This document shows positions 1 through 39,697 of a stretch of DNA of 64,000 nucleotides, piece after piece (position 1 is the stretch's first letter; every line of letters begins with the position of its first letter). This DNA is from Bartonella henselae str. Houston-1 (GTDB taxonomy: Bacteria; Pseudomonadota; Alphaproteobacteria; Rhizobiales; Rhizobiaceae). The notes below the pieces were generated by a model. The model saw only the letters and a program-made list of their open reading frames with translations, made no database searches and was not told where the DNA came from. The position numbers and the translations under genes are program-made. The stretch is from positions 372,001-436,000 of the forward strand of contig NC_005956.1 in assembly GCF_000046705.1 (NCBI RefSeq), read 5' to 3'.

Positions 1-642
1 AAATATGCTGCGGCTCTTGGTTTGGACGTTGATTTACAAGCTTGTATGAAAGCACGCGCCCTTTTAGGAAAACCCCGTGCTACATCAACAAATATTCCTG
101 CTATGCCATGGCAAGAGGTTCCGGCATTTTATCAAAGCTTGGATGATAAGATTCTTTCAAATTTAGCACTGAAGCTCTTGATTTTGACTGGAGTACGGTC
201 GTATCCATTGCGCTATTTGCGCCTCGAACAAATTGATAAAGATATATGGACGATACCCAAAGAAAATATGAAGGGTATTGTAGGGAAAGTTTCAGATTTT
301 CGCGTGCCATTAAGTCATGAAGCTTTGAAAATGATTGAGAAATCCCTCCCCTTTGAAAAGAATGGTTTTTTATTTGCTGGGAGTTCTGGAAAGCCTATAT
401 CTGATGTAACACTTTCTAAATTCATGAAAGACAAAGGTTTTGATTATAGACCCCATGGTTTCAGATCTAGTCTTCGTGACTGGATAGCAGAAACAACGTC
501 AACACCCTTTGAGATTGCTGAAACTGTTCTTGCGCATTCAGTTGGGAGTTCAGTGACAAAAGCTTATATGCGGACAGATTTTTTAGAACAACGACATACC
601 CTTATGGAACAGTGGGCTGCATTTATAACAGGAGCGACTTGA
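1..642 (+). CDS. int: Phage tyrosine integrase, C-terminal part (5' end outside window)
   Basis: The frame is open from base 1, so this is the 3' part of a longer gene. Counting from the codon at base 22, the catalytic set of a tyrosine recombinase is visible: Arg59 in TGVRS, the His145-x-x-Arg148 box in HGFRSSLRDW, His172 in AHSVG and nucleophile Tyr182 in KAYMRTD. The family cuts and rejoins attP and attB during integration and excision. The stop codon overlaps the -35 box of the next promoter (639-644), so the following C4 cassette is packed against the integrase. Family call is firm; target site is inferred from the tRNA-Phe at 54.1 kb. Confidence 0.93.
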   Translation, partial: KYAAALGLDVDLQACMKARALLGKPRATSTNIPAMPWQEVPAFYQSLDDKILSNLALKLLILTGVRSYPLRYLRLEQIDKDIWTIPKENMKGIVGKVSDFRVPLSHEALKMIEKSLPFEKNGFLFAGSSGKPISDVTLSKFMKDKGFDYRPHGFRSSLRDWIAETTSTPFEIAETVLAHSVGSSVTKAYMRTDFLEQRHTLMEQWAAFITGAT

Positions 643-668
643 CAGGCTTATAACAATGTGTCTATTGT
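639..668 (+). promoter_or_regulatory. Promoter of C4 cassette A
   Basis: TTGACA at 639-644 and TATTGT at 663-668, 18 bases apart. The same arrangement (TTGACA, 16-18 bases, TATTGT or AATAAT, then CGAATCAGG) recurs in front of cassettes B-D, F-K on the other strand. The -35 box overlaps the integrase stop codon. Confidence 0.65.
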
Positions 669-913
669 CGAATCAGGTGCCTAAGAAACATCTTGAATCG
701 ATAGCGGATAGATTACCGAAACAATCTTTTCTCCGCGCCTTAAAGACTTTGACTCGTTGTATGCGTGTAGCATATAAAGGTTTTGTCGGGTGTAGCTATG
801 CCATACAATACCCTTATGGGGAAAGCATAGCGACGGACTATCGACCGTGTTTCTTAGCGCCCGGCATTCCTCTGGAATGTCAATAAGAAACCTCTAATCG
901 ATAGGAGTTCGTT
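639..913 (+). ncRNA. c4: C4-type antisense RNA leader, cassette A
   Basis: Leader of the antirepressor gene at 914. Target boxes a1 UAAGAAAC (682-689) and b1 UCGAUAG (698-704) come first. The structured core follows, closed by GUCGGGUG pairing with CGCCCGGC and containing the inner stem GCTATGC/GCATAGC. It holds antisense boxes b' (838-844) and a' (849-856). A second target pair a2 (884-891) and b2 (898-904) lies just before the start codon, b2 overlapping the AGGAG Shine-Dalgarno (903-907). This matches the phage P1 C4 scheme, where the RNA blocks translation of the antirepressor operon. Code: UAAGAAAC + UCGAUAG. Confidence 0.85.
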
Positions 914-1504
914 ATGAACACTCTTATAAAAATTACGGAACAAACAATTGATCAGGAAGCTGTTCAGACAGTAAATGCACGTGAGTTGCATACATTTTTG
1001 GAAGTTAAATCTAATTTTAGAGATTGGATAAAAAATCGCATTGAGGACTACGGATTCTTAGAAAATAAGGACTTTATAAGTTTCGCTAAAATTTTAGCGA
1101 AACCTAATGCCCCTCAAGAAAATCAAGACTTTATGAGTTTTACTCAAAAAAGAGTAAAACCTAAAAGCGGTCGTCCAAGTATCGAATATCATCTTACTCT
1201 AGACATGGCAAAAGAGCTTTCAATGGTTGAACGCAATGAGAAAGGCAGGCAAGCTCGTCGTTACTTTATTGAGTGTGAGAAAAAGTTAAAAAGTCAATCT
1301 GTTGAGTATGATGTTGATAGACGCTTTGATTTGCCAAGCCATTGGGAGGGTATGAATGCTGGTGAAAAAGCTTTATATCTTTTAGGTCCTATCCATGTTC
1401 GTCTTATTGATGCTTTTAGAGTGGATGAAGAGAATAGAAAATATAAAGCTCTTATTAAAGAAGCTAAGCAGGTTTTAGCAACATCTGTTACGAAAGCTGC
1501 TTAG
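914..1504 (+). CDS. AntA-type phage antirepressor with variant C-terminal tail
   Basis: Residues 1-120 are an AntA-type domain (QTVNARELHTFLEV, DWIKNRIEDYGF, YHLTLDMAKELSMVERN). The C-terminal 60 residues (FDLPSHWEGMNAGEKALYLL to the end) are not the usual KilAC domain; a closely similar tail is found on the Rha-type protein at 13,898. In the AntA part a segment of about 19 codons is doubled (ENKDFISFAKILAKP and ENQDFMSFTQKRVKP), each copy holding a different 24-base inverted repeat (1080-1103, 1137-1160). Translation is predicted to be blocked by the C4 leader directly upstream. Antirepressors relieve prophage repression by binding or displacing the repressor; the target here is unknown. Confidence 0.85.
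   Translation: MNTLIKITEQTIDQEAVQTVNARELHTFLEVKSNFRDWIKNRIEDYGFLENKDFISFAKILAKPNAPQENQDFMSFTQKRVKPKSGRPSIEYHLTLDMAKELSMVERNEKGRQARRYFIECEKKLKSQSVEYDVDRRFDLPSHWEGMNAGEKALYLLGPIHVRLIDAFRVDEENRKYKALIKEAKQVLATSVTKAA
1080..1103 (+). repeat. Private inverted repeat 1 in antirepressor A
   Basis: Perfect 24-base palindrome, half-site GTTTCGCTAAAA. It sits directly after the codons DFIS at the site where the related genes carry their own, differing inverted repeats. Confidence 0.9.
1137..1160 (+). repeat. Private inverted repeat 2 in antirepressor A
   Basis: Arms GTTTTACTC and GAGTAAAAC around AAAAAA, also 24 bases, in the second copy of the duplicated segment. Length and phase equal those of the first repeat, but the arm sequence is different. 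Confidence 0.9.
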
Positions 1505-1522
1505 TTTTAAAAGCGATTTCAT

Positions 1523-1545
1523 CTCCCCGTTTCAAAAGCGGGGAG
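1523..1545. terminator. CTCCCCG/CGGGGAG hairpin
   Basis: Seven-base perfect stem with a nine-base loop between the antirepressor and the dinJ-type gene; no strong T-run follows. Similar C-rich/G-rich hairpins stand at 4324, 14437, 24149 and 36345, always at an edge of a regulatory module. Confidence 0.6.
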
Positions 1546-1565
1546 GGGATTATTGGATAAATCGC

Positions 1566-1601
1566 TTGACATAATCTTTAGATGTAGTACATTGTAGTAC
1601 A
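1566..1601 (+). promoter_or_regulatory. Promoter and operator of the dinJ-yafQ-like pair
   Basis: TTGACA at 1566-1571, then two direct copies of TGTAGTACA (1583-1591, 1593-1601) over the probable -10 (TACATT, 1588-1593). This fits autoregulation by the antitoxin or toxin-antitoxin complex, usual for RelB/DinJ families. The AGTAC core resembles the CI-type operators at 48.4 and 49.3 kb. Confidence 0.6.
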
Positions 1602-1623: not shown

Positions 1624-1899
1624 ATGGGTAAAATTCAAGCACGCATACCTGATGAAGTTCAGGAAGTTGCAAGCGCAGTAATCAAATCCACGGGCTTAAC
1701 TGTATCAGATGCGGTACGTATGTTTATGACCCGCATTGCTAGAGATAGAGCATTACCGCTTGATCTATTTCAACCCAATCTGGAAACATTACAGGCTATC
1801 GAGGATGCTGAAATGGGACGTGTCGAACGTACGTCATTAGATGGTTTGCGAGCCATGATTCGTGATGATAAAGCCGAAGTATGTAAGTCTGCAAAGTGA
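1624..1899 (+). CDS. dinJ: RelB/DinJ-family antitoxin
   Basis: 91 residues. The N-terminal ribbon-helix-helix pattern IQARIPDEVQEVASAVIKST followed by GLTVSDAVRMFMTRIARD is typical of DinJ/RelB antitoxins, which bind their own operator and neutralise a ribosome-dependent mRNase. A good Shine-Dalgarno (AGGAGG, 1610-1615) precedes the ATG. The toxin gene follows after 12 bases. A second, diverged copy of the pair is at 35,809-36,340. Confidence 0.85.
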   Translation: MGKIQARIPDEVQEVASAVIKSTGLTVSDAVRMFMTRIARDRALPLDLFQPNLETLQAIEDAEMGRVERTSLDGLRAMIRDDKAEVCKSAK

Positions 1900-1911
1900 C
1901 TTTGGTTAGCT

Positions 1912-2202
1912 ATGCGGGAAATTGTTTATACTAAATCTTTTCGGTGTGATCTGAAACGTGAAAGTAAAGGGCGATATGCTGATACATTAGAGACAGAAGA
2001 GACAGATTTGCTACTTGTGATCAAAGCATTAGCGGAAAACGAGCTCCTAAAAGTGCAGTGGAGAGATCACGCACTAACAGGGCAATGGCGAAACTGTCGT
2101 GATTGCCATATTAAACCAGATTTAGTTTTGATCTATCGAAAGCCTGATGATGAGACTTTAGAACTTTTGCGGCTTGGTTCACATTCTGAACTGCGTTTAT
2201 GA
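1912..2202 (+). CDS. yafQ: YafQ/RelE-family mRNA interferase toxin
   Basis: 96 residues with the YafQ pattern: YTKSFRCDLKRESKGR at the N-terminus, WRDHALTGQW and RDCHIKPDLVLIYR in the middle, and the C-terminal LLRLGSHSEL with the conserved His. YafQ-type toxins cleave mRNA on the ribosome. Length and key positions look intact, so it is probably functional. About 60 percent similar by eye to the copy at 36,059. Confidence 0.85.
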   Translation: MREIVYTKSFRCDLKRESKGRYADTLETEETDLLLVIKALAENELLKVQWRDHALTGQWRNCRDCHIKPDLVLIYRKPDDETLELLRLGSHSELRL

Positions 2203-2881: not shown

Positions 2882-2889
2882 CCATAAGA

Positions 2890-3591: not shown

Positions 3592-3711
3592 GGATTTAAA
3601 AATTGACCTCTTTCCCATTCGGAAGGTTGGCTTGTTAAAACCTATGTAGCTTTTTCATTGGAACAAAAGAATGTATTTGACATTATAGAAATTGTATCTT
3701 ATAAGTTACAG

Positions 3712-4014
3712 ATGTTTACAATATACAAAACAGAGCATTTTATAAAATGGTTAGATTCTTTAAAAGATGAGATTGCGCAAGCACATATTGTTAAACGCAT
3801 AGCAAGAATAGAAACGGGATTTCTTGGAAATGTAAAATTTTTCCGTGGAATTGGAGAATTAAAAATACATCATGGTCCTGGCTATAGAATCTATTTTGTA
3901 AAACAAGGTAAACAAATCATTTTGTTATTAAATGCTGGTGATAAATCTACACAACAAAAGGATATCGAAAAAGCTCTTCAATTAGTAAAGGAAATGAAAC
4001 ATGGAAATTACTAA
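3712..4014 (+). CDS. RelE/HigB-like addiction module killer protein (Gp49-like)
   Basis: 100 residues from MFTIYKTEHF; an upstream ATG at 3658 would add 18 residues without family similarity. Pattern FIKWLDSLKDEIAQAHIVKRIARIETG, then GIGELKIHHGPGYRIYFVKQG and LLLNAGDKSTQQKDIEKALQLVKE, matches the phage Gp49-like/RelE addiction killer family. It overlaps the antitoxin gene by 14 bases, so the toxin comes first, as usual for this family. Confidence 0.82.
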   Translation: MFTIYKTEHFIKWLDSLKDEIAQAHIVKRIARIETGFLGNVKFFRGIGELKIHHGPGYRIYFVKQGKQIILLLNAGDKSTQQKDIEKALQLVKEMKHGNY

Positions 4015-4364: not shown

Positions 4365-4643
4365 TTAAGCAACCTTTTTAATAGGGTTATCCAAATCTGG
4401 TTCATAAGCGCGCAACAAAGAATCCATGCTATGTGGTAACTCTGAATCGCCAAAATCTGTTAGAACTGCTAAAATCTTAACAATATTCGGTACATCATCT
4501 TGGAGTTTTAAAACTAAAACCTTTTCTACCAGACTCATGATGTCAACCAGAGCTGTACACTCTTTTTCGTTGATATTTTCATCATTAGAAAACTGAAACA
4601 ATGCCATCCACAAATCGCATAAGAAGTTGGTGTCTATCTTCAT
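4365..4643 (-). CDS. Conserved small protein coupled to full-length antirepressor B
   Basis: 92 residues from MKIDTNFLCDLWMAL; GGAGGT stands just before this ATG, which overlaps the antirepressor stop as ATGA, so translation is coupled. No known domain recognised. It is mostly helical and acidic and ends SMDSLLRAYEPDLDNPIKKVA. Near-identical copies follow the two other full-length antirepressors (24,194 and 36,383) and none follows a truncated one. A role together with the antirepressor is likely but undefined. Confidence 0.7.
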   Translation of the reverse strand: MKIDTNFLCDLWMALFQFSNDENINEKECTALVDIMSLVEKVLVLKLQDDVPNIVKILAVLTDFGDSELPHSMDSLLRAYEPDLDNPIKKVA

Positions 4644-5374
4644 TGCACACCTCCATGGATTTGTTCTCTCAAACAAGCTAATCCTTTTGGTGTAATTTTT
4701 GTTGAAGGGAGCACCTTTTCTGTACCATCCGGTCTTTGAATGGTGATAGCAGGACAGTCCATAAAACCTTTCTTTATCTTATCTTGATAAGGTAACAGTG
4801 GGCCACTCGGAGCACGTCGATAGACCCAATCGTGTTTACGTAAGTAATCGGTTAAATCTTTTGGACGTACTTCAAGCATCTTCGCTGCTTCGATAAGACC
4901 GAACAGCCCATCCGAACGTTTTAAGCCTTCCAAAGCTTCTGCTTTTGGCGCTAATTCAGCAATAACATGATCTTTCTGCTCGATTTGACTTTGCAAATGA
5001 TTCAAGACACCAAGTAATGCTTCAGGTTTGGAGTAGTCAACTTGTGGTGTTGCTACTTGTTTCAAAAGCCGTTCACATTTGATAAAATATTGACGAGCTT
5101 CATGTCCTTTATCATTCCTCTCTATCATAGAAAGGTGTTTAGCCATGTCTAATGTAATGTGGTATTCTTTTACCTTTCCACCGTTTACTAAATTTTTAGT
5201 AAGCGTTATAAAGTTTATATTTTCCTGAAACTTACATTCTTTAATGCGATTTTTAATCCAGTCATTAAAGCGGGCTTTTATCTCTAAAAATGCATGCAAA
5301 TCACGCGCATTGACCGTTTGAACAGTCTCTTGATCAATGACTTGTTCTGATATTTCTATAAGAGTGTTCATCAT
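4640..5374 (-). CDS. ant: Full-length AntA-KilAC antirepressor, cassette B
   Basis: 244 residues. AntA domain at about 1-110 (NARDLHAFLEIKARFNDWIKNRI, YHITLDMAKHLSMIERN), a linker predicted to be coiled coil (LLGVLNHLQSQIEQKDHVIAEL), and a KilAC-type C-terminal domain from about 155 (DGLFGLIEAAKMLEVRPKDL, GPLLPYQDKIKKGFMDCPAI). It is the last and only full-length gene of array 1. The inverted repeat at 5182-5205 lies in the AntA part. Expression is predicted to be held off by C4 leader B. This family switches phages to lytic growth by antagonising repressors. Confidence 0.88.
   Translation of the reverse strand: MMNTLIEISEQVIDQETVQTVNARDLHAFLEIKARFNDWIKNRIKECKFQENINFITLTKNLVNGGKVKEYHITLDMAKHLSMIERNDKGHEARQYFIKCERLLKQVATPQVDYSKPEALLGVLNHLQSQIEQKDHVIAELAPKAEALEGLKRSDGLFGLIEAAKMLEVRPKDLTDYLRKHDWVYRRAPSGPLLPYQDKIKKGFMDCPAITIQRPDGTEKVLPSTKITPKGLACLREQIHGGVQ
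5182..5205 (-). repeat. Private inverted repeat in antirepressor B
   Basis: 24 bases with half-site CGTTTACTAAAT read on the plus strand; one arm mismatch plus the centre. Same codon site as in the related genes. Confidence 0.85.
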
Positions 5375-5645
5375 GAACTCCTATTGGTTAGATGTTTGTT
5401 AATGACGCTCTAAATAGAGTGCCGGGTGCTAACAAACACGGCCAATAGTCCGTCGTCACACTTTCCCCGTTAGGGTATTGTATAGTGTAACCACACCCGA
5501 CAACATTATTATATGCACGTAGCATACAATGAGTCAAAGTCTTTAATGTGCGGAGAAAAGATTGTATCGGCAATCTATCCGCTATTGGTTTAAGGTGTTC
5601 GTTAGGCACCTGATTCGATTATTCATATTGTTGCCACATTGTCAA
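5375..5645 (-). ncRNA. c4: C4-type antisense RNA leader, cassette B
   Basis: Promoter TTGACA 5640-5645 and AATAAT 5618-5623. Target boxes a1 5597-5604 (one G-U pair) and b1 5582-5588; structured core 5421-5501 with inner stem GTTACAC/GTGTGAC; antisense boxes b' 5442-5448 and a' 5430-5437; second targets a2 5394-5401 and b2 5381-5387 against the Shine-Dalgarno of the gene ending at 4640. Code: UAACAAAC + CCAAUAG. Start of the element overlaps the 3' end of truncated gene C. Confidence 0.85.
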
Positions 5646-6195
5646 GTTGCAATGTAATATTTTTATAAAAATAATCCGTTAAATCCTTTGGTCGTACTTC
5701 AAGCATCTTCGCTGCTTCAATAAGACCGAACAGCCCATCCGAACGTTTTAAACCTTCCAAAGCCTCTGCTTTTGGAGTCAATTCGGCAATGGTGTTATCC
5801 TTTTGCTCGATTTGGCTTTGCAAATGATTCAAGACACCAAGTAATGCTTCAGGTTTGGAGTAGTCAACTTGTGGTGTTGCTACTTGTTTCAAAAGCCGTT
5901 CACATTTGATAAAATATTGACGTGCTTCATGTCCTTTCTCATTCCTCTCTATCATAGAAAGGTGTTTAGCCATGTCTAATGTAATGTGGTATTCTTTCAC
6001 TTTTCCACCCCGGTAAAAATTTACCGCAGTTACAAAGTTTATATTTTCCTGAAATTTACATTCTTTAATGCGGTTTTTAATCCAATTTCTAAATTCAGAC
6101 TTTATTTCCAAAAATGCATGCAAATCACGCGCATTGACCGTTTGAACAGTTTCTTGATCAATAACCTGTTCTGATATTTCTATAAGAGTGTTCAT
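5623..6195 (-). CDS. 3'-truncated antirepressor, cassette C
   Basis: 190 residues. AntA domain and coiled-coil linker are intact and the start of the C-terminal domain is present (DGLFGLIEAAKMLEVRPKDLTDY), but identity to the full-length genes stops at DLTDY. The remaining residues are read from the promoter of the next cassette. Only cassette J shares this breakpoint. It lacks most of the KilAC domain, so it may act as a domain fragment, as an inhibitor of full-length protein, or only as a recombination donor. Confidence 0.75.
   Translation of the reverse strand: MNTLIEISEQVIDQETVQTVNARDLHAFLEIKSEFRNWIKNRIKECKFQENINFVTAVNFYRGGKVKEYHITLDMAKHLSMIERNEKGHEARQYFIKCERLLKQVATPQVDYSKPEALLGVLNHLQSQIEQKDNTIAELTPKAEALEGLKRSDGLFGLIEAAKMLEVRPKDLTDYFYKNITLQLDNVATI
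6011..6026 (-). repeat. Private inverted repeat in antirepressor C
   Basis: Arms CGGTAAA and TTTACCG, 16 bases in all, at the same site in the AntA domain. It is the shortest of the set. Confidence 0.8.
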
Positions 6196-6470
6196 GTGAA
6201 CTCCTATGCAGTTAGACGTTTCTTAATGACACTCAAAAAGAGTGCCGGGTGCTAAGAAACACGGTGCATAGTCCGTCGTCACGCTTTTCCCATAAGGGTA
6301 TTGTATAGCGTAACTACACCCGACAAAACCACTATATGCCACACGCATATAATGAGTCAAAGCCTTTAATGTGCGGAAAATAAACTGTTTCGGCAATCCA
6401 TCCGCTATGCATTTAAGGTGTTTCTTAGGCACCTGATTCGACAATAGACATAATATTGACATGTTGTCAA
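6196..6470 (-). ncRNA. c4: C4-type antisense RNA leader, cassette C
   Basis: Promoter TTGACA 6465-6470 and TATTGT 6441-6446. a1 6420-6427, b1 6405-6411; core 6244-6324; b' 6265-6271, a' 6253-6260; a2 6218-6225, b2 6204-6210 next to the Shine-Dalgarno of gene C. Code: UAAGAAAC + UGCAUAG. The truncated gene D is read through most of this element. Confidence 0.85.
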
Positions 6471-6771
6471 ATAAAAAATTAAAATATTGACGAGCTTCAT
6501 GTCCTTTCTCATTCCTCTCTATCATAGAAAGGTGTTTAGCCATGTCTAAGGTAATGTGGTATTCTATGCTTGGACGCCCACCTTTTTCTAAATTTTTAGA
6601 AAAACCTATAAAGTCTATATTTTCTCGAAAATTACATTCTTTAATGCGATTTTTAATCCAGTCTGCAAACTTTGATGTAATTCCCAAAAATACATGCAAA
6701 TCACGTGCGTTAACAGTTTGAACAGTTTCCTGTCCAACAGTTTGTTCCGATATCGGAATAAGAGTGTTCAT
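6223..6771 (-). CDS. 3'-truncated antirepressor fused in frame to the next C4 region, cassette D
   Basis: 182 residues. The AntA domain runs to HEARQYF (about residue 97), where similarity to the full-length genes ends exactly. The rest (NFLFDNMSILCLLSNQVPKK and further) is a translation of the promoter and C4 core of cassette C. The same breakpoint and the same frame recur in cassettes G, I and K. The fusion part is probably not selected as protein, but its translation would run across the downstream C4 RNA. Confidence 0.7.
   Translation of the reverse strand: MNTLIPISEQTVGQETVQTVNARDLHVFLGITSKFADWIKNRIKECNFRENIDFIGFSKNLEKGGRPSIEYHITLDMAKHLSMIERNEKGHEARQYFNFLFDNMSILCLLSNQVPKKHLKCIADGLPKQFIFRTLKALTHYMRVAYSGFVGCSYAIQYPYGKSVTTDYAPCFLAPGTLFECH
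6583..6604 (-). repeat. Private inverted repeat in antirepressor D
   Basis: Perfect arms TTTTTCTAAA and TTTAGAAAAA around TT, 22 bases, at the common site in the AntA domain. Confidence 0.88.
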
Positions 6772-7044
6772 GAGAACTCCTTATCGTTAAATGTTTTTGA
6801 TTGACACTCGATAAAAGAGTGCCGGGTGCTCAAAAACACGGCGATAAGTCCGTCGTTATGCTTTCCCCCAAGGGGTATTGTATAGCATAACCACACCCGA
6901 CAAGCCATTTATATGCTATACGCATATAATGAGTCAAAGCTTTTAATCTGCGGAAAAAAGACTGTTTCGGCAATCCACCCGCTTATCGTCAAGGTGTTTT
7001 TGAGGCACCTGATTCGATTATTCATATTGTCGCTACATTGTCAA
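6772..7044 (-). ncRNA. c4: C4-type antisense RNA leader, cassette D
   Basis: Promoter TTGACA 7039-7044 and AATAAT 7017-7022. a1 6996-7003, b1 6982-6988; core 6821-6901; b' 6842-6848, a' 6830-6837; a2 6793-6800, b2 6780-6786 before gene D. Code: UCAAAAAC + CGAUAAG. First cassette of array 1, directly downstream of the tail gene D end. Confidence 0.85.
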
Positions 7045-13439: not shown

Positions 13440-13625
13440 TTGAAATATTGGCTAGAAATGAATGGGGAAAAATGAGGGTTGGATTTGAAATCGCACCCTT
13501 TAAAACAGCAAATCATCAGGATTTTGGTTCACTCGCATTTCAAATGCGAGTGAATAGTAAAGGGTAGCATTTCAAATGCGATCCTTTGAAAACAACAATA
13601 TGTGAAATAATTTTTTAAAAGTATA
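13440..13625 (+). pseudogene. Remnant of a Rha-type gene with tandem palindromes
   Basis: Short stretches resemble the variable region of the Rha-type gene at 13,898: VGFEIAP, then HQDFGSLAFQMRV. Three palindrome-like units follow each other: about 13,478-13,500; 13,526-13,552 (half-site TTCACTCGCATTT, perfect); and about 13,559-13,588 (imperfect). The flanking coding sequence is lost. It is best read as debris of a palindrome-bearing cassette. Confidence 0.5.
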
Positions 13626-13897
13626 TTGACACTAATAAACCCTCATGTTACCTGAATCACAAGTGCTAGAAACACTAAACCATTAGCGGATAGGTCACGT
13701 AAGATCTCTCCCATGCATTTAAAATACTGATTGTCTTTTATGCTATTATTGGCATATAACGATTTTGTCGGGTGTAGCTATACTATACAATACCTTCTCA
13801 CGAGGGGAAGGCATAGCGACGGACTAATGGCCGTGTTTCTAACGCCCGGCACCCTTGGGGGTGTCAATAGAGACATTAAAACCATTAGGAGTTCATC
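13626..13897 (+). ncRNA. c4: C4-type antisense RNA leader, cassette E
   Basis: The only cassette besides A on the plus strand. TTGACA at 13,626-13,631. a1 13,667-13,673, b1 13,680-13,686; core 13,767-13,850; b' CTAATGG 13,824-13,830, a' GTTTCTA 13,835-13,841; a2 13,868-13,874 (one G-U pair), b2 13,882-13,888 overlapping the Shine-Dalgarno of the Rha-type gene. Code: UAGAAAC + CCAUUAG. The sequence between b1 and the core differs most from the other copies. Confidence 0.82.
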
Positions 13898-14419
13898 ATG
13901 AACAATTTAGTAACAATCGATAGTGCTGGTATTGCTGTTACAACTTCTTTAAAAATTGCCGAGGGTGTGGGGAATACGCATAAAACAGTTATACAGTTAG
14001 TACGCAATAATCGTAAGGATTTTGAAGAGTTTGGTTCACTTGGATTTGAAATCCAAGTGAGTAAAAGAGACGGTAAAGGCGGTCAAAAGAGAGAAGTTGC
14101 TATTCTCAATGAACCACAAGCAACCTTACTCATGACTTATATGCGCAATAATGACACGGTGCGCGCATTTAAAAAAGCTCTCGTTAAAGCTTTTTATGAT
14201 TTAAGAAATCAATTGATTGATAATGACCGCGATACACGGTTTGATTTTCCTAGCAACTGGAATGAAATGGGAGCGACTGAAAAAGCTGTCTACATTTATG
14301 GACCTCTCCATATGCATCTTGTTAAAGCCTTTACGTTAGTAGAAGAGAGTAAACATTATAAAACGCTTGTTGAAGAAGCCAAGCAAGTTTTAGAAAAAAC
14401 TATTGTAAAAGCTGCTTAA
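13898..14419 (+). CDS. Rha-type phage regulatory protein with AntA-A-like tail
   Basis: 173 residues. The N-terminal 105 residues are a Rha (pRha) domain: VTTSLKIAEGVGNTHKTVIQLVRNN, DFEEFGSLGFEI, NEPQATLLMTYMRNNDTVRAFKKALVKAFYDLR. The last 60 residues (RFDFPSNWNEMGATEKAVYI to the end) closely resemble the tail of the AntA protein at 914, so the two are domain-swapped relatives. Rha proteins regulate or interfere with phage lytic growth in known cases. It has its own C4 leader and a private palindrome at 14,036-14,060. Confidence 0.85.
   Translation: MNNLVTIDSAGIAVTTSLKIAEGVGNTHKTVIQLVRNNRKDFEEFGSLGFEIQVSKRDGKGGQKREVAILNEPQATLLMTYMRNNDTVRAFKKALVKAFYDLRNQLIDNDRDTRFDFPSNWNEMGATEKAVYIYGPLHMHLVKAFTLVEESKHYKTLVEEAKQVLEKTIVKAA
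14036..14060 (+). repeat. Private inverted repeat in the Rha-type gene
   Basis: Perfect 12-base arms TCACTTGGATTT and AAATCCAAGTGA around a G. It lies in the coding sequence for GSLGFEIQVS. The remnant at 13.5 kb has the same frame of sequence with a different core (CGCATTT). Confidence 0.9.
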
Positions 14420-24193: not shown

Positions 24194-24472
24194 TTAAGCA
24201 ACCTTTTTAATAGGGTTATCCAAATCTGGTTCGTAAGCGCGCAACAAAGAATCCATGCTATGCGGTAACTCTGAATCGCCAAAATCTGTTAGAACTGTTA
24301 AGATTTTAAGTATACTTGGCATCTCATCTTGAAGTTTTAAAATCAAAGCTTTTTCTATTACACTCATAGTATCAACCAGAGCAGTACAATCTTTATCATT
24401 CATATTTTCATGTTTAGAAAATTGAGATAATGCCATCCACAAATCGCATAAGAAGTTGGTGTCTATCTTCAT
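24194..24472 (-). CDS. Conserved small protein coupled to full-length antirepressor F
   Basis: 92 residues from MKIDTNFLCDLWMALSQFSK. The start overlaps the antirepressor stop as ATGA. Compared with the copies at 4365 and 36,383, which are identical to each other, this one has about 14 substitutions in the middle (SKHENMNDKDCTALVDTMSV) but the same ends. That pattern suggests a maintained protein. No function recognised. Confidence 0.7.
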   Translation of the reverse strand: MKIDTNFLCDLWMALSQFSKHENMNDKDCTALVDTMSVIEKALILKLQDEMPSILKILTVLTDFGDSELPHSMDSLLRAYEPDLDNPIKKVA

Positions 24473-25227
24473 TGTACACCCCCAAAGATTTGCTCTCTTA
24501 AGCATGCCAATCCTCTGGAGGTGATTTTCGTTGAAGGGAGCACCTTTTCTGTACCATCCGGTCTTTGAATGGTGATAGCAGGGCAATCCATAAAGCCTTT
24601 CTTGATCTTGTCCTGATAAGGTAACAGAGGCGCCCCTGGAGCTCGTCGATAGACCCAGTCATGTTTGCGCAAGTAATCGGTTAAGTCCTTTGGTCGCACC
24701 TCCAACATCTTCGCCGCTTCAATTAAACCAAACAGACCATCAGAACGTTTTAACCCTTCCAAAGCCTCTGCTTTTGGTGCTAATTCTGCAATAACATGGT
24801 CTTTTTGCTCGATTTGACTTTGTAGGTGATTCAAGACACCAAGTAATGCTTCGGGTTTGGAGTAATCAACTTGTGGAGGGGCTATCTGTGGTGTTGCTAC
24901 TTGTTTTAACCGTCTTTCACATTCGATAAAGTATAAACGAGCTTCTCTACCTTTCTTATTATTTTCAAGCATAGAGAGCTCTTTGGCTACGCTTAAAGTC
25001 AGATGATAATCTTTACGATTGTGACCACCTCTGCCTTTGCTCCCCAAAATCGGGGAGCAAACAAAATCTTGATTTTCTAATAAATTATATTTGTTGATAC
25101 GGTCAGTAATCCAAGTAGAGAAATCTTTTCCTATTTCCAAAAACGTATGTAATTCACGTGCATTTACCGTCTGAACAGTGTCGCCACCAATACTGGTTTG
25201 ATATATGTCGATTAAATATTGTGCCAT
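24469..25227 (-). CDS. ant: Full-length AntA-KilAC antirepressor, cassette F
   Basis: 252 residues starting MAQYLIDIYQTS, a second N-terminal type shared with cassettes H and J. AntA domain about 1-115 (VNARELHTFLEIGKDFSTWI, YHLTLSVAKELSMLENNKKG), coiled-coil linker, KilAC domain from about 165. The linker has an extra repeat (ATPQIAPPQVDYSKPEALLG). It is the last gene of array 2 and the only full-length one there. Private inverted repeat at 25,036-25,061; translation predicted to be controlled by C4 leader F. Confidence 0.88.
   Translation of the reverse strand: MAQYLIDIYQTSIGGDTVQTVNARELHTFLEIGKDFSTWITDRINKYNLLENQDFVCSPILGSKGRGGHNRKDYHLTLSVAKELSMLENNKKGREARLYFIECERRLKQVATPQIAPPQVDYSKPEALLGVLNHLQSQIEQKDHVIAELAPKAEALEGLKRSDGLFGLIEAAKMLEVRPKDLTDYLRKHDWVYRRAPGAPLLPYQDKIKKGFMDCPAITIQRPDGTEKVLPSTKITSRGLACLREQIFGGVQ
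25036..25061 (-). repeat. Private inverted repeat in antirepressor F
   Basis: Perfect ten-base arms TTTGCTCCCC and GGGGAGCAAA around six bases. Its nearest relative is the repeat of cassette J, which differs by one base pair in each arm (TTTGCTTCCC). Confidence 0.9.
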
Positions 25228-25505
25228 GATTTGGCTCCTATGTGCTTAAAGGTTTTTCATTGACACTCTATGAAGAGCGCCGGGTGCTGAAAAACACGGC
25301 ACATAGCCCGTCGTTATGCCTTTCCCATAAGGGTATTGTATAGCATAACCACACCCGACGATATTATTATATGCCTGTAGCATATAATGAGTCAAAGCTT
25401 TTAATTGGCGGTGAAAAGACTGTTTCGGCAATCTATCCGCTATGTGTTTAAGGTGTTTTTCAAGCACCTGATTCGACAATAGACATAATGTTGACATGTT
25501 GTCAA
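25228..25505 (-). ncRNA. c4: C4-type antisense RNA leader, cassette F
   Basis: Promoter TTGACA 25,500-25,505 and TATTGT 25,476-25,481. a1 25,455-25,462, b1 25,440-25,446; core 25,279-25,359 with inner stem GTTATGC/GCATAAC; b' 25,300-25,306, a' 25,288-25,295; a2 25,252-25,259, b2 25,238-25,244 before gene F. Code: UGAAAAAC + CACAUAG. Confidence 0.85.
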
Positions 25506-25800
25506 ACAAAAAATTAAAATATTGACGAGCTTCATGTCCTTTATCATTACGTTCGATCATGGAAAGGTGTTTAGCCATGTCTAAGGTAATGTGGTATTCT
25601 TTTACTTTTCCACCGTTTTCTAAATTTTTAGAAAGCGTTATAAAGTTTATGTTTTCCAAAAACTTACATTCTTTAATGCGATTTTTAATCCAGTCATTAA
25701 AGCGGGCTTTTATCTCTAAAAATGCATGCAATTCGCGTGCATTGACTGTTTGAACAATCTCTTGTCCAATTGCTTGTTCTGATATTTTAATGAGAGTCAT
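25246..25800 (-). CDS. 3'-truncated antirepressor fused in frame to the next C4 region, cassette G
   Basis: 184 residues. AntA domain to HEARQYF, then read-through of C4 element F (NFLFDNMSTLCLLSNQVLEK). The AntA coding part is almost the same as that of cassette K, including an identical inverted repeat, but the two leaders have different codes. Likely a 5' donor cassette or an AntA-only protein. Confidence 0.7.
   Translation of the reverse strand: MTLIKISEQAIGQEIVQTVNARELHAFLEIKARFNDWIKNRIKECKFLENINFITLSKNLENGGKVKEYHITLDMAKHLSMIERNDKGHEARQYFNFLFDNMSTLCLLSNQVLEKHLKHIADRLPKQSFHRQLKALTHYMLQAYNNIVGCGYAIQYPYGKGITTGYVPCFSAPGALHRVSMKNL
25615..25636 (-). repeat. Inverted repeat in antirepressor G
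   Basis: Arms GTTTTCTAAA and TTTAGAAAGC (one mismatch) around TT. Identical to the repeat in cassette K at 39,236-39,257. Confidence 0.88.
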
Positions 25801-26076
25801 TGTAAACTCCTTGTGGGTTAGATGTTTGTTAATGACACTCGAAAAGAGTGCCGGGTGCTAACAAACACGGCCACAAGCCCGTCGCTATGCTTTTCCCATT
25901 AAGGGTATTTTATGGCATAGCTACACCCGACAAGCCATTTATATGCTATACGCATATAATGAGTCAAAGCCTTTAATGCGCGGAGAAAAGATTGTGTCGG
26001 CAATCTACCCGCTTGTGGATTCAAGGTGTTTGTTAGGCCCCTGATTCGATTATTCATATTGTCGCCACATTGTCAA
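25801..26076 (-). ncRNA. c4: C4-type antisense RNA leader, cassette G
   Basis: Promoter TTGACA 26,071-26,076 with AATAAT near 26,049-26,054. a1 26,028-26,035, b1 26,012-26,018; core 25,850-25,931; b' 25,871-25,877, a' 25,859-25,866; a2 25,824-25,831, b2 25,810-25,816. Code: UAACAAAC + CCACAAG. Confidence 0.85.
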
Positions 26077-36382: not shown

Positions 36383-36661
36383 TTAAGCAACCTTTTTAAT
36401 AGGGTTATCCAAATCTGGTTCATAAGCGCGCAACAAAGAATCCATGCTATGTGGTAACTCTGAATCGCCAAAATCTGTTAGAACTGCTAAAATCTTAACA
36501 ATATTCGGTACATCATCTTGGAGTTTTAAAACTAAAACCTTTTCTACCAGACTCATGATGTCAACCAGAGCTGTACACTCTTTTTCGTTGATATTTTCAT
36601 CATTAGAAAACTGAAACAATGCCATCCACAAATCGCATAAGAAGTTGGTGTCTATCTTCAT
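36383..36661 (-). CDS. Conserved small protein coupled to full-length antirepressor H
   Basis: 92 residues from MKIDTNFL, the same protein sequence as at 4365. ATGA overlap with the antirepressor stop and GGAGGT before the start. The near-identity of this 3' block (small gene plus KilAC coding part) between arrays 1 and 3 points to recent gene conversion or duplication. Confidence 0.7.
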   Translation of the reverse strand: MKIDTNFLCDLWMALFQFSNDENINEKECTALVDIMSLVEKVLVLKLQDDVPNIVKILAVLTDFGDSELPHSMDSLLRAYEPDLDNPIKKVA

Positions 36662-37416
36662 TGCACACCTCCATGGATTTGTTCTCTCAAACAAGCTAAT
36701 CCTTTTGGTGTAATTTTTGTTGAAGGGAGCACCTTTTCTGTACCATCCGGTCTTTGAATGGTGATAGCAGGACAGTCCATAAAACCTTTCTTTATCTTAT
36801 CTTGATAAGGTAACAGTGGGCCACTCGGAGCACGTCGATAGACCCAATCGTGTTTACGTAAGTAATCGGTTAAATCTTTTGGACGTACTTCAAGCATCTT
36901 CGCTGCTTCGATAAGACCGAACAGCCCATCCGAACGTTTTAAGCCTTCCAAAGCTTCTGCTTTTGGCGCTAATTCAGCAATCACATGATCTTTCTGCTCA
37001 ATTTGGCTTTGTAGGTGATTCAAGACACCACGCAACACTTCGGGTTTAGAATAGTCAACTTGTGGTGTTTCTATCTGTAAAGTAGCTGCTTGTTTTAACC
37101 GTCTTTCACACTCAATAAAGTATAAACGAGCTTCTCTACCTTTCTTATTGTTCTCCACCATAGAAAGTTCTTTGGCTACATTTAAGGTGAGGTGATAATC
37201 TTTAGAGGGACGACCACCTTGGAGGTTTTCCCCAAAATTGGTGAAAACTAAATAATCCTGATTTTCTAATAAATTATATTTGTTGATGCGATCTTTAATC
37301 CAAGTAGAAAAATCTTTACCTACTTCTAAGAATGTATGTAACTCACGTGCATTTACTGTCTGAACGATATCACCATCAATCGTAGTTTTGTGTATGTCGA
37401 TTAAATATTGTGCCAT
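36658..37416 (-). CDS. ant: Full-length AntA-KilAC antirepressor, cassette H
   Basis: 252 residues from MAQYLIDIHKTTIDGD; a longer reading frame upstream runs through the C4 leader and is not used. AntA domain 1-115 (VNARELHTFLEVGKDFSTWI, YHLTLNVAKELSMVENNKKG), linker predicted as coiled coil, KilAC domain from about 165, the latter identical to that of cassette B. Last and only full-length gene of array 3. Private repeat at 37,225-37,248. Confidence 0.88.
   Translation of the reverse strand: MAQYLIDIHKTTIDGDIVQTVNARELHTFLEVGKDFSTWIKDRINKYNLLENQDYLVFTNFGENLQGGRPSKDYHLTLNVAKELSMVENNKKGREARLYFIECERRLKQAATLQIETPQVDYSKPEVLRGVLNHLQSQIEQKDHVIAELAPKAEALEGLKRSDGLFGLIEAAKMLEVRPKDLTDYLRKHDWVYRRAPSGPLLPYQDKIKKGFMDCPAITIQRPDGTEKVLPSTKITPKGLACLREQIHGGVQ
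37225..37248 (-). repeat. Private inverted repeat in antirepressor H
   Basis: Arms GTTTTCCCC and GGTGAAAAC (one mismatch) around six bases, 24 in all. Confidence 0.85.
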
Positions 37417-37693
37417 GATGTTGGCTCCTGTGTAGTTAAACGTTTTTGATTGACACTTCAAAAAGTGCCGGGTGCTCAAAAACACGGTACACAGTCCGTC
37501 GTTACGCTTTCCCCGCGAGGGTATTGTATAGCATAACCACACCCGACAAGCCATTTATATGCCACAAGCATATAATGAGTCAAAGCCTTTAATGTGCGGA
37601 GAAGAGATTGTTTCGGCAATCTACCCGCTGTGTATTTAAGGTGTTTTTGAGGCACCTGATTCGACAATAGACATAATACTGACATGTTGTCAA
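37417..37693 (-). ncRNA. c4: C4-type antisense RNA leader, cassette H
   Basis: Promoter TTGACA 37,688-37,693. a1 37,643-37,650, b1 37,628-37,634; core 37,467-37,547; b' 37,488-37,494, a' 37,476-37,483; a2 37,442-37,449, b2 37,428-37,434 before gene H. Code: UCAAAAAC + UACACAG. Same b box as cassette J but a different a box. Confidence 0.85.
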
Positions 37694-37991
37694 ACAAAAA
37701 ATTAAAATATTGACGAGCTTCATGTCCTTTATCATTACGTTCGATCATGGAAAGGTGTTTAGCCATGTCTAAGGTAATGTGGTATTCTTTAGAAGGACGC
37801 CCACCTGAACTTTCGCTCAAAAAAGAGCAAAAGTCATATCCTTCTTTAAATTTACAGTCTTGAATACGTCTGATAATCCAGTCTTTAAAGCTGGTTTTTA
37901 CTTCTAAAAACGCATGCAAATCACGTGCGTTAACAGTTTGAACAGTTTCCTGTCCAACAGTTTGTTCCGATATCGGAATAAGAGTATTCAT
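37476..37991 (-). CDS. 3'-truncated antirepressor fused in frame to the next C4 region, cassette I
   Basis: 171 residues. AntA domain (TSFKDWIIRRIQDCKF, YHITLDMAKHLSMIERNDKG) up to HEARQYF, then read-through of C4 element H. The N-terminus (MNTLIPISEQTVGQETVQTV) equals that of cassette D. Private repeat at 37,809-37,834. Confidence 0.7.
   Translation of the reverse strand: MNTLIPISEQTVGQETVQTVNARDLHAFLEVKTSFKDWIIRRIQDCKFKEGYDFCSFLSESSGGRPSKEYHITLDMAKHLSMIERNDKGHEARQYFNFLFDNMSVLCLLSNQVPQKHLKYTAGRLPKQSLLRTLKALTHYMLVAYKWLVGCGYAIQYPRGESVTTDCVPCF
37809..37834 (-). repeat. Private inverted repeat in antirepressor I
   Basis: Arms ACTTTCGCTC and GAGCAAAAGT (one mismatch) around AAAAAA. Confidence 0.85.
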
Positions 37992-38267
37992 AATGAACTC
38001 CTATCGATTAGAGGTTTTTGATTGACACTTTAAAAGAGTGCCGGGCGCTCAAAAACACGGTCGATAGTCCGTCGTTACACTTTCCCCACAAAGGGTATTG
38101 TATAGCGTAACTACACCCGACAAATCTATTATACGCATGTAGCGTATAATGAGTCAAAGCCTTTAATGCACGGAAAAAAGATTGTGTCGGCAATCTATCC
38201 GCTATCGATTTAAGGTGTTTTTGAGGCACCTGATTCGACAATAGACATACTGACAGTACATTGTCAA
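37992..38267 (-). ncRNA. c4: C4-type antisense RNA leader, cassette I
   Basis: Promoter TTGACA 38,262-38,267. a1 38,217-38,224, b1 38,202-38,208; core 38,040-38,121; b' 38,061-38,067, a' 38,049-38,056; a2 38,014-38,021, b2 38,001-38,007. Code: UCAAAAAC + UCGAUAG. Same b box as cassette A but a different a box. Confidence 0.85.
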
Positions 38268-38847
38268 ATAAAAATTTAGCAAATCTACGTAAGTAATCGG
38301 TTAAATCCTTTGGTCGCACCTCTAACATCTTCGCGGCTTCGATAAGACCGAACAGCCCATCCGAACGTTTTAAACCTTCCAAAGCCTCTGCTTTTGGAGT
38401 CAATTCGGCAATGGTGTTATCCTTTTGCTCGATTTGGCTTTGCAAATGATTCAAGACACCAAGTAATGCTTCAGGTTTGGAGTAGTCAACTTGTGGTGTT
38501 TCTATCTGTAAAGTAGCTGCTTGTTTTAACCGTCTTTCACACTCAATAAAGTATAAACGAGCTTCTCTACCTTTCTTATTGTTCTCCACCATAGAAAGTT
38601 CTTTGGCTACACTTAAGGTGAGGTGATATTCTTTACGATTGTGACCACCTCTACCTTTGCTTCCCAAAATAGGGAAGCAAACAAAATCTTGATTTTCTAA
38701 TAAATTGTATTTGTGGATACGTTCTGTAATCCAATCCGCAAATTTTTTACCTACTTCTAAGAATGTATGTAACTCACGTGCATTTACTGTCTGAACGATA
38801 TCACCATCAATCGTAGTTTTGTGTATGTCGATTAAATATTGTGCCAT
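38008..38847 (-). CDS. 3'-truncated antirepressor fused to the next C4 region, cassette J
   Basis: 279 residues, of which about 190 belong to the antirepressor: MAQYLIDIHKTT-type start, AntA domain, linker, and the first part of the KilAC domain up to KDLTDYLR. The rest is read from C4 element I in the same frame as in the other fusions. The breakpoint is the same as in cassette C. Private repeat at 38,656-38,681. Confidence 0.7.
   Translation of the reverse strand: MAQYLIDIHKTTIDGDIVQTVNARELHTFLEVGKKFADWITERIHKYNLLENQDFVCFPILGSKGRGGHNRKEYHLTLSVAKELSMVENNKKGREARLYFIECERRLKQAATLQIETPQVDYSKPEALLGVLNHLQSQIEQKDNTIAELTPKAEALEGLKRSDGLFGLIEAAKMLEVRPKDLTDYLRRFAKFLFDNVLSVCLLSNQVPQKHLKSIADRLPTQSFFRALKALTHYTLHAYNRFVGCSYAIQYPLWGKCNDGLSTVFLSARHSFKVSIKNL
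38656..38681 (-). repeat. Private inverted repeat in antirepressor J
   Basis: Perfect arms TTTGCTTCCC and GGGAAGCAAA around AAAATA. Compared with cassette F one base pair is changed on both arms at once. Confidence 0.9.
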
Positions 38848-39126
38848 GATGTTGGCTCCTGTGTAGTTTAGACGTTTCTTAATGACACTCCAAAAGAGTG
38901 CCGGGTGCTAAGAAACACGGTACACAGTCCGTCGTTATACTTTTCCCAAAAGGGTATTGTATAGCATAACCACACCCGACAAAATCATTATATGCGTTTA
39001 ACCTACAACGAGTCAAAGCCTTTAATGCGCGGAAAAGAGATTGTTTCGGCAATCTATCCGCTGTGTATTCAAGGTGTTTCTTAGGCACCTGATTCGACAA
39101 TAGACATAATACTGACATGTTGTCAA
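38848..39126 (-). ncRNA. c4: C4-type antisense RNA leader, cassette J
   Basis: Promoter TTGACA 39,121-39,126. a1 39,076-39,083, b1 39,061-39,067; core 38,900-38,980; b' 38,921-38,927, a' 38,909-38,916; a2 38,874-38,881, b2 38,859-38,865. Code: UAAGAAAC + UACACAG. Confidence 0.85.
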
Positions 39127-39421
39127 ACAAAAAATTAAAATATTGACGAGCTTCATGTCCTTTATCATTACGTTCGATCATGGAAAGGTGTTTAGCCATG
39201 TCTAAGGTAATGTGGTATTCTTTTACCTTTCCACCGTTTTCTAAATTTTTAGAAAGCGTTATAAAGTTTATGTTTTCCAAAAACTTACATTCTTTAATGC
39301 GATTTTTAATCCAGTCTGCAAACTTTGATGTGATTCCCAAAAATGCATGCAAATCACGAGCATTGACGGTTTGAACAGTTTCCTGATCAATAACCTGTTC
39401 TGATATTTTAATGAGAGTCAT
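38879..39421 (-). CDS. 3'-truncated antirepressor fused in frame to the next C4 region, cassette K
   Basis: 180 residues. AntA domain to HEARQYF, then read-through of C4 element J. The variable segment and its inverted repeat equal those of cassette G, while the leader code differs, so leader code and repeat assort independently. First cassette of array 3. Confidence 0.7.
   Translation of the reverse strand: MTLIKISEQVIDQETVQTVNARDLHAFLGITSKFADWIKNRIKECKFLENINFITLSKNLENGGKVKEYHITLDMAKHLSMIERNDKGHEARQYFNFLFDNMSVLCLLSNQVPKKHLEYTADRLPKQSLFRALKALTRCRLNAYNDFVGCGYAIQYPFGKSITTDCVPCFLAPGTLLECH
39236..39257 (-). repeat. Inverted repeat in antirepressor K
   Basis: Arms GTTTTCTAAA and TTTAGAAAGC around TT, identical to that of cassette G. 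Confidence 0.88.
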
Positions 39422-39697
39422 TGTGAATCCCTAGTTGTTAGATGTTTTTCATTGACACTTTAAAAGAGTGCCGGGTGCTGAAAAACACGGCAACTAGTCC
39501 GTCGTTACACTTTTCCCATAAGGGTATTGTATAGTGTAACCACACCCGACAAACCTCTTTATACGCTATACGCATATAATGAGTCAAAATTTTAAATTTG
39601 CGGAAAAAAGATTGTTTCGGCAATCCATCCGCTAGTTGCTTAAGGCGTTTTTCAGGCACCTGATTCGACAATAGACATAACGTTACTATCTTGTCAA
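39422..39697 (-). ncRNA. c4: C4-type antisense RNA leader, cassette K
   Basis: Promoter TTGACA 39,692-39,697 and TATTGT 39,668-39,673. a1 39,647-39,654, b1 39,632-39,638; core 39,470-39,550 with inner stem GTTACAC/GTGTAAC; b' 39,491-39,497, a' 39,479-39,486; a2 39,444-39,451, b2 39,431-39,437. Code: UGAAAAAC + CAACUAG. The Shine-Dalgarno is weaker (AGGGATTC) than in the others. Confidence 0.85.

What the first reader, a model, noticed from the sequence alone, without database searches (positions are those of the whole stretch)
639..39697. Eleven C4-type antisense RNA leaders, each with its own two-part address
Seen: eleven copies (A-K) of a leader of about 275 bases, each with promoter, target boxes a1/b1, structured core with antisense boxes b'/a', and target boxes a2/b2 beside the Shine-Dalgarno. 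In each copy a' and b' match their own a and b boxes, with at most a G-U pair. The a boxes come in five types (UAAGAAAC, UAACAAAC, UCAAAAAC, UGAAAAAC, UAGAAAC), the b boxes in nine, and all eleven combinations differ. Where two copies share one box (A/I or H/J share b; A/C/J, D/H/I, B/G and F/K share a) the other box differs. The inner stem also shows compensating changes (GCTATGC/GCATAGC, GTTACAC/GTGTAAC, GTTATGC/GCATAAC). Known: in phages P1 and P7, C4 RNA blocks antirepressor synthesis through two such boxes. Inference: one prophage carries many insulated C4 switches, selected against crosstalk; this would be a natural set of orthogonal antisense regulators.
Basis: partly seen in the sequence, partly recalled or inferred. 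Interest (0 to 1): 0.93.

Follow-up and report, generated by a model that had tools for sequence, protein, structure and literature searches.

The report
Prophage antirepressor switches with private RNA addresses
A Bartonella prophage region carries eleven copies of a phage RNA switch, each with its own two-part recognition code, and the switch belongs to a widespread RNA family whose members share the layout of a classic phage immunity RNA.

Summary
In detail: eleven leaders, all 44 boxes pair with their own core, all eleven addresses differ. They are the only RF02221 (sRNA-Xcc1) matches in the genome; the Rfam C4 model finds none. Layout nevertheless matches phage P1 C4, a1-b1-[b'-a']-a2-b2, with b2 at the Shine-Dalgarno of an antirepressor-type gene. 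In 290 units of 19 Bartonella genomes, 240 have all four boxes matched. RF02221-type sites elsewhere often show the same layout (14 of 30 loci, 26 of 114 genome sites, 25 of 29 viral sites), so sRNA-Xcc1 looks like a second C4-type family. A near-consensus promoter ends about 6 bases before the core. Insulation is good but not complete: the cognate is best in 11 of 11, yet J fits C's target without mismatch if G-U pairs count. 'All eleven differ' has probability 0.73 under re-pairing; over 19 genomes, sharing of both boxes is rarer than re-pairing predicts (1 vs 5.26, P = 0.025). Selection against crosstalk is plausible, not proven.

The parts
639..904 (+). Unit A: upstream -35 at 639; a1 682-689, b1 698-704, core 784-874 with b' 838-844 and a' 849-856, a2 884-891, b2 898-904
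914..1504 (+). AntA-domain antirepressor downstream of A
   Evidence: PF08346 E 1.8e-29
5381..5645 (-). Unit B: a1 5597-5604, b1 5582-5588, b' 5442-5448, a' 5430-5437, a2 5394-5401, b2 5381-5387
4640..5374 (-). Complete AntA + KilAC antirepressor downstream of B (end of array D-C-B)
6204..6470 (-). Unit C: a1 6420-6427, b1 6405-6411, b' 6265-6271, a' 6253-6260, a2 6218-6225, b2 6204-6210
5623..6195 (-). AntA antirepressor with only a sub-threshold match to the first part of KilAC, downstream of C
6780..7044 (-). Unit D: a1 6996-7003, b1 6982-6988, b' 6842-6848, a' 6830-6837, a2 6793-6800, b2 6780-6786
6223..6771 (-). AntA-only ORF downstream of D whose frame runs through leader C
13614..13888 (+). 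Unit E: a1 13667-13673, b1 13680-13686, b' 13824-13830, a' 13835-13841, a2 13868-13874, b2 13882-13888; the -35 given here (13614) is a weak pattern match
13898..14419 (+). Rha (Phage_pRha) protein downstream of E
   Evidence: PF09669 E 5.9e-18
25238..25505 (-). Unit F: a1 25455-25462, b1 25440-25446, b' 25300-25306, a' 25288-25295, a2 25252-25259, b2 25238-25244
24469..25227 (-). Complete AntA + KilAC antirepressor downstream of F (end of array G-F)
25810..26076 (-). Unit G: a1 26028-26035, b1 26012-26018, b' 25871-25877, a' 25859-25866, a2 25824-25831, b2 25810-25816
25246..25800 (-). AntA-only ORF downstream of G, frame runs through leader F
37428..37693 (-). Unit H: a1 37643-37650, b1 37628-37634, b' 37488-37494, a' 37476-37483, a2 37442-37449, b2 37428-37434
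36658..37416 (-). Complete AntA + KilAC antirepressor downstream of H (end of array K-J-I-H)
   Evidence: (scanned with an upstream extension)
38001..38267 (-). Unit I: a1 38217-38224, b1 38202-38208, b' 38061-38067, a' 38049-38056, a2 38014-38021, b2 38001-38007; second promoter-like site TTGACT-18-TATAAT 38157-38128
37476..37991 (-). AntA-only ORF downstream of I, frame runs into the core of leader H
38859..39126 (-). Unit J: a1 39076-39083, b1 39061-39067, b' 38921-38927, a' 38909-38916, a2 38874-38881, b2 38859-38865; second promoter-like site TTGACT-18-TATAAT 39016-38987
38008..38847 (-). AntA + partial KilAC (below cut-off) ORF downstream of J, frame runs through leader I
39431..39697 (-). 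Unit K: a1 39647-39654, b1 39632-39638, b' 39491-39497, a' 39479-39486, a2 39444-39451, b2 39431-39437
38879..39421 (-). AntA-only ORF downstream of K, frame runs through leader J

Best explanation
Each leader is a self-contained C4-type antisense switch for one phage antirepressor-type gene. The core RNA, read from a promoter directly in front of it or from the longer leader transcript, folds with b' in a hairpin loop and a' single-stranded. It pairs with a2 and b2 on the mRNA, covers the Shine-Dalgarno and blocks translation of AntA or Rha. The upstream a1/b1 copy can pair with the same a'/b' and so competes for the core, as a brake or sponge. Because each unit carries its own a+b address, the units act largely independently. 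Shown here: boxes, order, covariation, overlap with the ribosome site, promoter-like sequences, downstream genes. Inferred: expression, binding, direction of regulation, the role of a1/b1, and that address avoidance is selected.
For: 44 of 44 window boxes pair with their own core, against a mean of 8.6 for random deals. In 290 units of 19 genomes a1, b1, a2, b2 pair without mismatch in 265, 270, 265, 271, and 240 of 290 have all four matched; in the first set of 188, a different unit's box fits in 14, 11, 10 and 7% of random draws. RNAalifold on 151 dereplicated leaders, given no boxes, pairs a1 with a' and b1 with b'; four b columns use all four Watson-Crick types. Start codons lie 8-12 nt after b2 in 241 of the 255 units with an ORF of 60 aa or more (35 of 290 had none). 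Downstream genes: AntA in 10 and Rha in 1 of 11 window units; AntA in 59 and Rha in 18 of 84 Bartonella ORFs scanned, of 222 unique ones. P1 C4 has the same order, and my box finder recovers sequences that lie at P1's annotated sites. The core promoter TTGACT-18-TATAAT scores 10 or more of 12 in 156 of 290 units and in 0 of 1,740 shifted controls. a1/b1 match the own core in 240 of 256 units with a cis target but in 11 of 19 without a matching b2 (Fisher 4e-5).
Against: The Rfam C4 and c4-a1b1 models do not match. No transcript or repression was observed. J on C and D on I come within 2.0 kcal/mol of the cognate; J on C is mismatch-free with G-U pairs allowed, and across 19 genomes 12 of 256 target-bearing units have such a fit to a less than 95% identical unit of the same genome. 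The consensus fold is also compatible with a1/b1 pairing in cis inside one transcript. The core promoter is weaker (7-9 of 12) in 134 of 290 units, and a plain promoter scan of 36400-39900 finds 15 sites where shuffles give 9.9 (sd 3.4). Leaders of tandem arrays are close relatives, so the 11 are not independent.
Confidence: 0.76

Rival explanations
1. Cis-acting leader: a1/b1 pair with b'/a' of the same transcript and the leader is a self-contained attenuator or translation switch, with little action in trans by the core, in the manner proposed for IsrK or Brt leaders.
For: a1<b1<b'<a' is nested, so cis pairing is possible and RNAalifold predicts it. IsrK of Gifsy-1 is a leader RNA with a terminator in front of an antirepressor gene (PMC4825925, abstract and passages).
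Against: Nineteen of 290 units keep a core without a matching b2. The core has a promoter-like site of its own in at least 156 of 290. The Bartonella hairpin after b1 is weak: 77 of 290 reach -3 kcal/mol with a T run.
Confidence: 0.15
2. The address diversity is neutral: units were acquired with different phages or drifted together with their boxes, and nothing selects against crosstalk.
For: For the window alone, the chance that all eleven combinations differ is 0.73. Between-genome sharing at 75-95% identity may reflect orthology. Some G-U-tolerant cross-fits are tolerated: 12 of 256 units.
Against: Over 19 genomes 1 of 1,924 within-genome pairs share both boxes where re-pairing expects 5.26 (P = 0.025); at matched identity 1 is seen and 21.2 expected.
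Confidence: 0.37
3. These are the published Brt RNAs of Bartonella (Brt1-9 with Trp regulators).
For: Same genus and a plastic region with prophage genes; 194-203 nt RNAs upstream of DNA-binding protein genes (PMC5387305, abstract, passages and sections 3.2, 3.4, 3.6).
Against: Nine Brts spread over 277 kb with Brt4 and Brt9 identical and HTH/XRE genes downstream; here eleven non-identical units within about 39 kb with AntA or Rha. The Brt coordinates (supplement) were not seen.
Confidence: 0.04
4. Decayed phage repeats without current function.
For: The six array-internal AntA ORFs (after C, D, G, I, J, K) lack KilAC or have only a sub-threshold part of it.
Against: Matching of four boxes per unit, compensatory changes and promoter conservation.
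Confidence: 0.06

Closest known systems
C4 antisense RNA of phages P1 and P7 (Rfam RF01695, with RF03163 c4-a1b1)
   Same: Order a1-b1-[b'-a']-a2-b2, three-stem core with b' in the second hairpin loop and a' single-stranded, b2 at the ribosome site, antirepressor operon downstream.
   Different: Different covariance family (no C4 hit); AntA or Rha directly downstream rather than icd-ant; promoter-like site at the core, while P1 C4 is cut out by RNase P (Hartmann 1995 as cited in PMC5320573, passage); eleven units in one genome.
sRNA-Xcc1 (Rfam RF02221)
   Same: All eleven cores match the model; the Xanthomonas RNA was mapped as 88 nt, about the length of the 87-position model (PMC2996969, passage).
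   Different: Described as an integron-encoded trans-acting sRNA under virulence regulators (title of Chen 2011 seen in a reference list). Of 72 Xanthomonadaceae-type sites here, 60 have a1+b1, 7 have a2+b2 (chance level), and 58 have a strong hairpin with a T run between b1 and core.
C4-like Group 1 sRNAs of Acinetobacter baumannii
   Same: A large family of C4-derived RNAs in one genome with variable a' (PMC5320573, abstract and passages).
   Different: Reported there as sRNAs matching the Rfam C4 motif, with targets suggested rather than shown; the passages I read give no matched a1/b1/a2/b2 set per copy.
IsrK-AnrP of Salmonella Gifsy-1
   Same: Leader RNA controlling translation of an antirepressor gene; the isrK model also overlaps the P1 a1b1 region below its threshold.
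   Different: Short IsrK activates translation in trans through orf45 (PMC4825925); no such activator was shown here.
Brt RNAs of Bartonella henselae
   Same: Multi-copy leader RNAs upstream of regulator genes in the same genus.
   Different: HTH/XRE genes downstream, different copy number and spread (PMC5387305).

Membership tests
C4 antisense RNA (RF01695) | Match to the Rfam covariance model | tested here: not met
   0 matches in the genome (its own control genomes also gave none) and none listed up to E 5 in the window; P1 as positive control 68.8 bits
C4 antisense RNA (RF01695) | Order a1, b1, core with b' then a', a2, b2 | tested here: met
   11 of 11; P1 annotation
C4 antisense RNA (RF01695) | b2 overlaps or adjoins the Shine-Dalgarno of an antirepressor-type gene | tested here: met
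   11 of 11: the last base of b2 begins GGAG, in K GGGA; AntA 10, Rha 1
C4 antisense RNA (RF01695) | RNase P processing at the 5' end of the core | not testable with these tools
   A promoter-like site about 6 nt before the core suggests another route in Bartonella
C4 antisense RNA (RF01695) | Antisense repression in trans | not testable with these tools
   Pairing energies only
sRNA-Xcc1 (RF02221) | Match to the Rfam covariance model | tested here: met
   11 of 11 at E 5e-4 or better; 4 of 11 over the gathering score
sRNA-Xcc1 (RF02221) | Free-standing RNA of about 88 nt | tested here: inconclusive
   Core promoter-like site fits; no transcript data
Brt RNA family | HTH/XRE Trp gene downstream | tested here: not met
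   AntA or Rha instead

The most novel reading that the evidence does not exclude
RF02221 is a second, widespread C4-type lineage whose a+b addresses act as RNA immunity groups: units with the same address are avoided within a genome, and target-less 'orphan' cores (19 of 290 Bartonella units, and most Xanthomonadaceae-type sRNA-Xcc1 sites) are free-standing guides that silence antirepressors of incoming phages of the same address. In Bartonella, 16 of 19 orphans have a mismatch-free two-box target (G-U allowed) in another sampled genome and 2 of 19 in their own (two of the 19 are near-identical). Target-bearing units show similar rates (203 of 256 elsewhere; 59 of 256 in the own genome, 12 of 256 when the partner is less than 95% identical), so this is compatible with, not evidence for, the immunity reading.
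Probability: 0.25. Interest if true: 0.88.

Novelty: new variant of a known kind. Interest (0 to 1): 0.72.

Why it matters
It gives a working hypothesis for an Rfam family described so far as a virulence-linked sRNA, and supplies hundreds of natural cognate RNA pairs whose box differences can be counted. That makes the rules of short antisense specificity, and the idea of RNA-defined phage immunity groups, directly testable in E. coli.

Tried and rejected
C4 proper: searched and not matched.

Relay idea: in the window 5 of 6 upstream array ORFs read on into the next leader, which could couple units. Tested: such a frame is open in 21 of 43 internal leaders and 24 of 61 first leaders, and many stops lie at a2 or 11 nt after its start, so no support.

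Intrinsic terminator after b1 in Bartonella: a covarying hairpin exists but only 77 of 290 reach -3 kcal/mol with a T run, and the pattern scan of 36400-39900 found one terminator-like site, on the other strand, against 2.3 expected. Not claimed.

'All eleven differ' as evidence of selection: rejected (P = 0.73). The within/between comparison at matched identity (1 vs 21.2) is kept as supporting only, since between-genome pairs include orthologues.

Orphan cores as immunity guides: tested against own and foreign targets, with rates similar to those of other units.

Literature: seven searches were answered. Their listings were capped in part (20 of 89, 20 of 49, 8 of 57). No listed paper, by title and abstract start, links sRNA-Xcc1 to C4 function or describes these Bartonella leaders. 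PMC12189769 holds both family names; I read passages only, in which one table lists both kinds in one Xylella genome and nothing links them.
Full report
What the window is. The window is part of a 1,931,047-base single-contig genome. That length equals, from memory, Bartonella henselae Houston-1; PMC5387305 lists 1.93 Mb for it. The region holds tailed-phage genes: of ten ORFs scanned, matches to integrase, terminase, portal, major head, neck/tail completion, tail sheath, tape measure, another tail protein and a primosomal protein, and one of unknown function, so it is a prophage region. Whether it is one prophage or a composite was not resolved.

The units. cmscan against Rfam finds sRNA-Xcc1 (RF02221) at all eleven places (E 3.9e-7 to 5e-4; 4 of 11 over the gathering score) and lists no C4 match up to E 5. 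A whole-genome search lists exactly these eleven. The alignment and coordinates show in each: a1 and b1, the core with b' in a hairpin loop and a' single-stranded, then a2 and b2. The last base of b2 begins GGAG (GGGA in K) and a start codon follows shortly after. An upstream -35 is marked in each, weak in E. All 44 boxes pair with their own core without mismatch, two of them with one G-U pair; random deals of the cores give a mean of 8.6 and a maximum of 32 in 20,000.

Genes. AntA follows ten units and Rha follows E. Three arrays, D-C-B, G-F and K-J-I-H, each end in a complete AntA + KilAC gene. The six earlier members lack KilAC or have only a sub-threshold part of it, and five of the six ORFs read on into the next leader. 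That frame is not clearly more open inside arrays than outside (21 of 43 vs 24 of 61), so I draw no regulatory conclusion.

Beyond the window. RF02221 occurs in 50 of 71 Bartonella genomes searched, up to 46 copies in one. I took 19 genomes, chosen mainly for many copies, and obtained 297 cores, of which 290 could be parsed (7 unparsed or too near an end; some genomes are incompletely covered, for example 43 of 46 in G026). Boxes pair without mismatch in 265, 270, 265 and 271 of 290 for a1, b1, a2, b2; 240 of 290 have all four, and 34 of 290 lack a full a2+b2 pair. In an earlier set of 188 units, a random other unit's different box fitted in 14, 11, 10 and 7% of draws. RNAalifold on 151 dereplicated leaders of that set, without knowledge of the boxes, pairs a1 with a' and b1 with b', with all four Watson-Crick types at four b columns.

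Outside Bartonella. In an even sample of 398 genomes of the phylum, 55 have a match (the window's genome included). I wrote a finder that knows no box sequence: two segments of the 3' half of the core, each complementary to one upstream and one downstream site in the order a1<b1, a2<b2. On P1 it returns sequences that lie at the annotated sites. Full architecture: 14 of 30 loci, one per genome, of the best matches (chimera null 12 of 1,500); 26 of 114 genome-contig sites with enough flank (null 19 of 1,500), and 25 of 29 viral sites (null 56 of 1,500). Several viral sites carry the same address and are not independent. Of the 114, 72 are a Xanthomonadaceae-type core: 60 have a1+b1 (null 9.5%), 7 have a2+b2 (null 11%), and 58 have a strong hairpin with a T run between b1 and core; of the other 42, 25 have the full architecture. 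Of 58 ORFs found downstream of full architectures, I scanned 45: P22_AR_C 5, Rha 4, Bro-N 4, P22_AR_N 3, ORF6N 3, KilA-N 2, ORF6C 2, AntA 1, SymE 1, two others once each; with 27 family matches in all, at least 18 of the 45 had none. Of the 72 Xanthomonadaceae-type sites 40 ORFs were scanned, with four marginal single matches. So RF02221 behaves as a C4-type family with antirepressor-type targets, plus a branch that mostly keeps only a1/b1.

A second promoter. In Bartonella a TTGACT-18-TATAAT site ends 5-8 nt, mostly 6, before the core: 10 or more of 12 in 156 of 290 units, 0 of 1,740 at shifted anchors; window copies score 9-11. At 9 or more it is found in 0 of 29 viral, 0 of 30 phylum and 2 of 114 genome-contig sites. 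This predicts a primary C4-type transcript starting at the core, unlike P1, where RNase P cuts it out (PMC5320573 passage). It is a sequence prediction only; a plain scan of 36400-39900 gives 15 promoter-like sites against 9.9 (sd 3.4) in shuffles.

Insulation. Summed duplex energies: cognate -15.1 to -18.0, non-cognate mean -6.3; the cognate is best in 11 of 11 rows and columns, but J on C (-14.9) and D on I (-13.8) come within 2.0 kcal/mol. J on C is mismatch-free if G-U pairs are allowed; over 19 genomes, 59 of 256 target-bearing units have such a fit to another unit of their genome, 49 of them to a copy at least 95% identical and 12 to a less similar unit (two count in both). For P1 and P7 a four-base difference is reported to stop cross-reaction (PMC5320573 citing Citron and Schuster 1990); ten window pairs differ by only two or three bases in all, so leakage is possible. 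The window's eleven distinct combinations have probability 0.73 under re-pairing. Across 19 genomes, after collapsing copies 95% or more identical, 1 of 1,924 within-genome pairs share both boxes against 5.26 under re-pairing (P = 0.025; 0.023-0.045 at four thresholds). At 75-95% identity 1 is seen within genomes and 21.2 expected from between-genome pairs, a comparison confounded by orthology.

Orphan units. Nineteen of 290 units have no matching b2; 11 of these 19 keep a1/b1 matching the own core against 240 of 256 units with a cis target (Fisher 4e-5; two of the 19 are near-identical). This suggests that self-matching is maintained where there is a target. Orphan addresses match a target in the own genome in 2 of 19 and elsewhere in 16 of 19, similar to other units.

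Mechanism and limits. The best-supported reading is a C4-type antisense switch per gene. Shown: anatomy, covariation, gene context, promoter-like sites. Inferred: expression, trans action, sponge role of a1/b1, selection for distinct addresses. No expression or interaction data were available here.

Noticed in passing
L095 12747-13020 and 5835-5562, L103 937-664 and 7765-7491, L068 872-598, L070 864-590, L429 10578-10853, L451 360-633, L447 5239-4967: Tandem pairs about 273 nt apart in which the first unit keeps a1/b1 and core but its a2/b2 are replaced by a conserved sequence leading into the next unit's promoter; in several the core no longer matches its own a1/b1.
   Followed up: partly
window, region just before each core, e.g. 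38987-39016: A palindrome of the type TTATATGC-N5-GCATATAA covers the spacer and -10 of the core promoter-like site and varies in a paired way; it could be a repressor operator or an RNA hairpin.
   Followed up: no
72 Xanthomonadaceae-type loci among L191-L309: sRNA-Xcc1-type cores mostly keep a1/b1 followed by a strong hairpin with a T run but lack a2/b2, which suggests attenuation of their own transcript.
   Followed up: partly
alignment A3 (84 Bartonella downstream ORFs): Seven members match YdcK beta-solenoid and seven hexapeptide-repeat families; 59 AntA + 18 Rha + 7 adds up to 84, so this may be a third class of controlled gene, not checked protein by protein.
   Followed up: no
window 1624-2202 and 3658-4321: Two toxin-antitoxin-like gene pairs (RelB with YafQ; Gp49-like with HI1420-like antidote) near units A and D-C-B.
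   Followed up: no
alignment A1 (downstream ORFs outside Bartonella): One full-architecture unit lies upstream of a SymE-family gene, which fits the published symE + sRNA-Xcc1 integron cassette (PMC12444791, passages).
   Followed up: no
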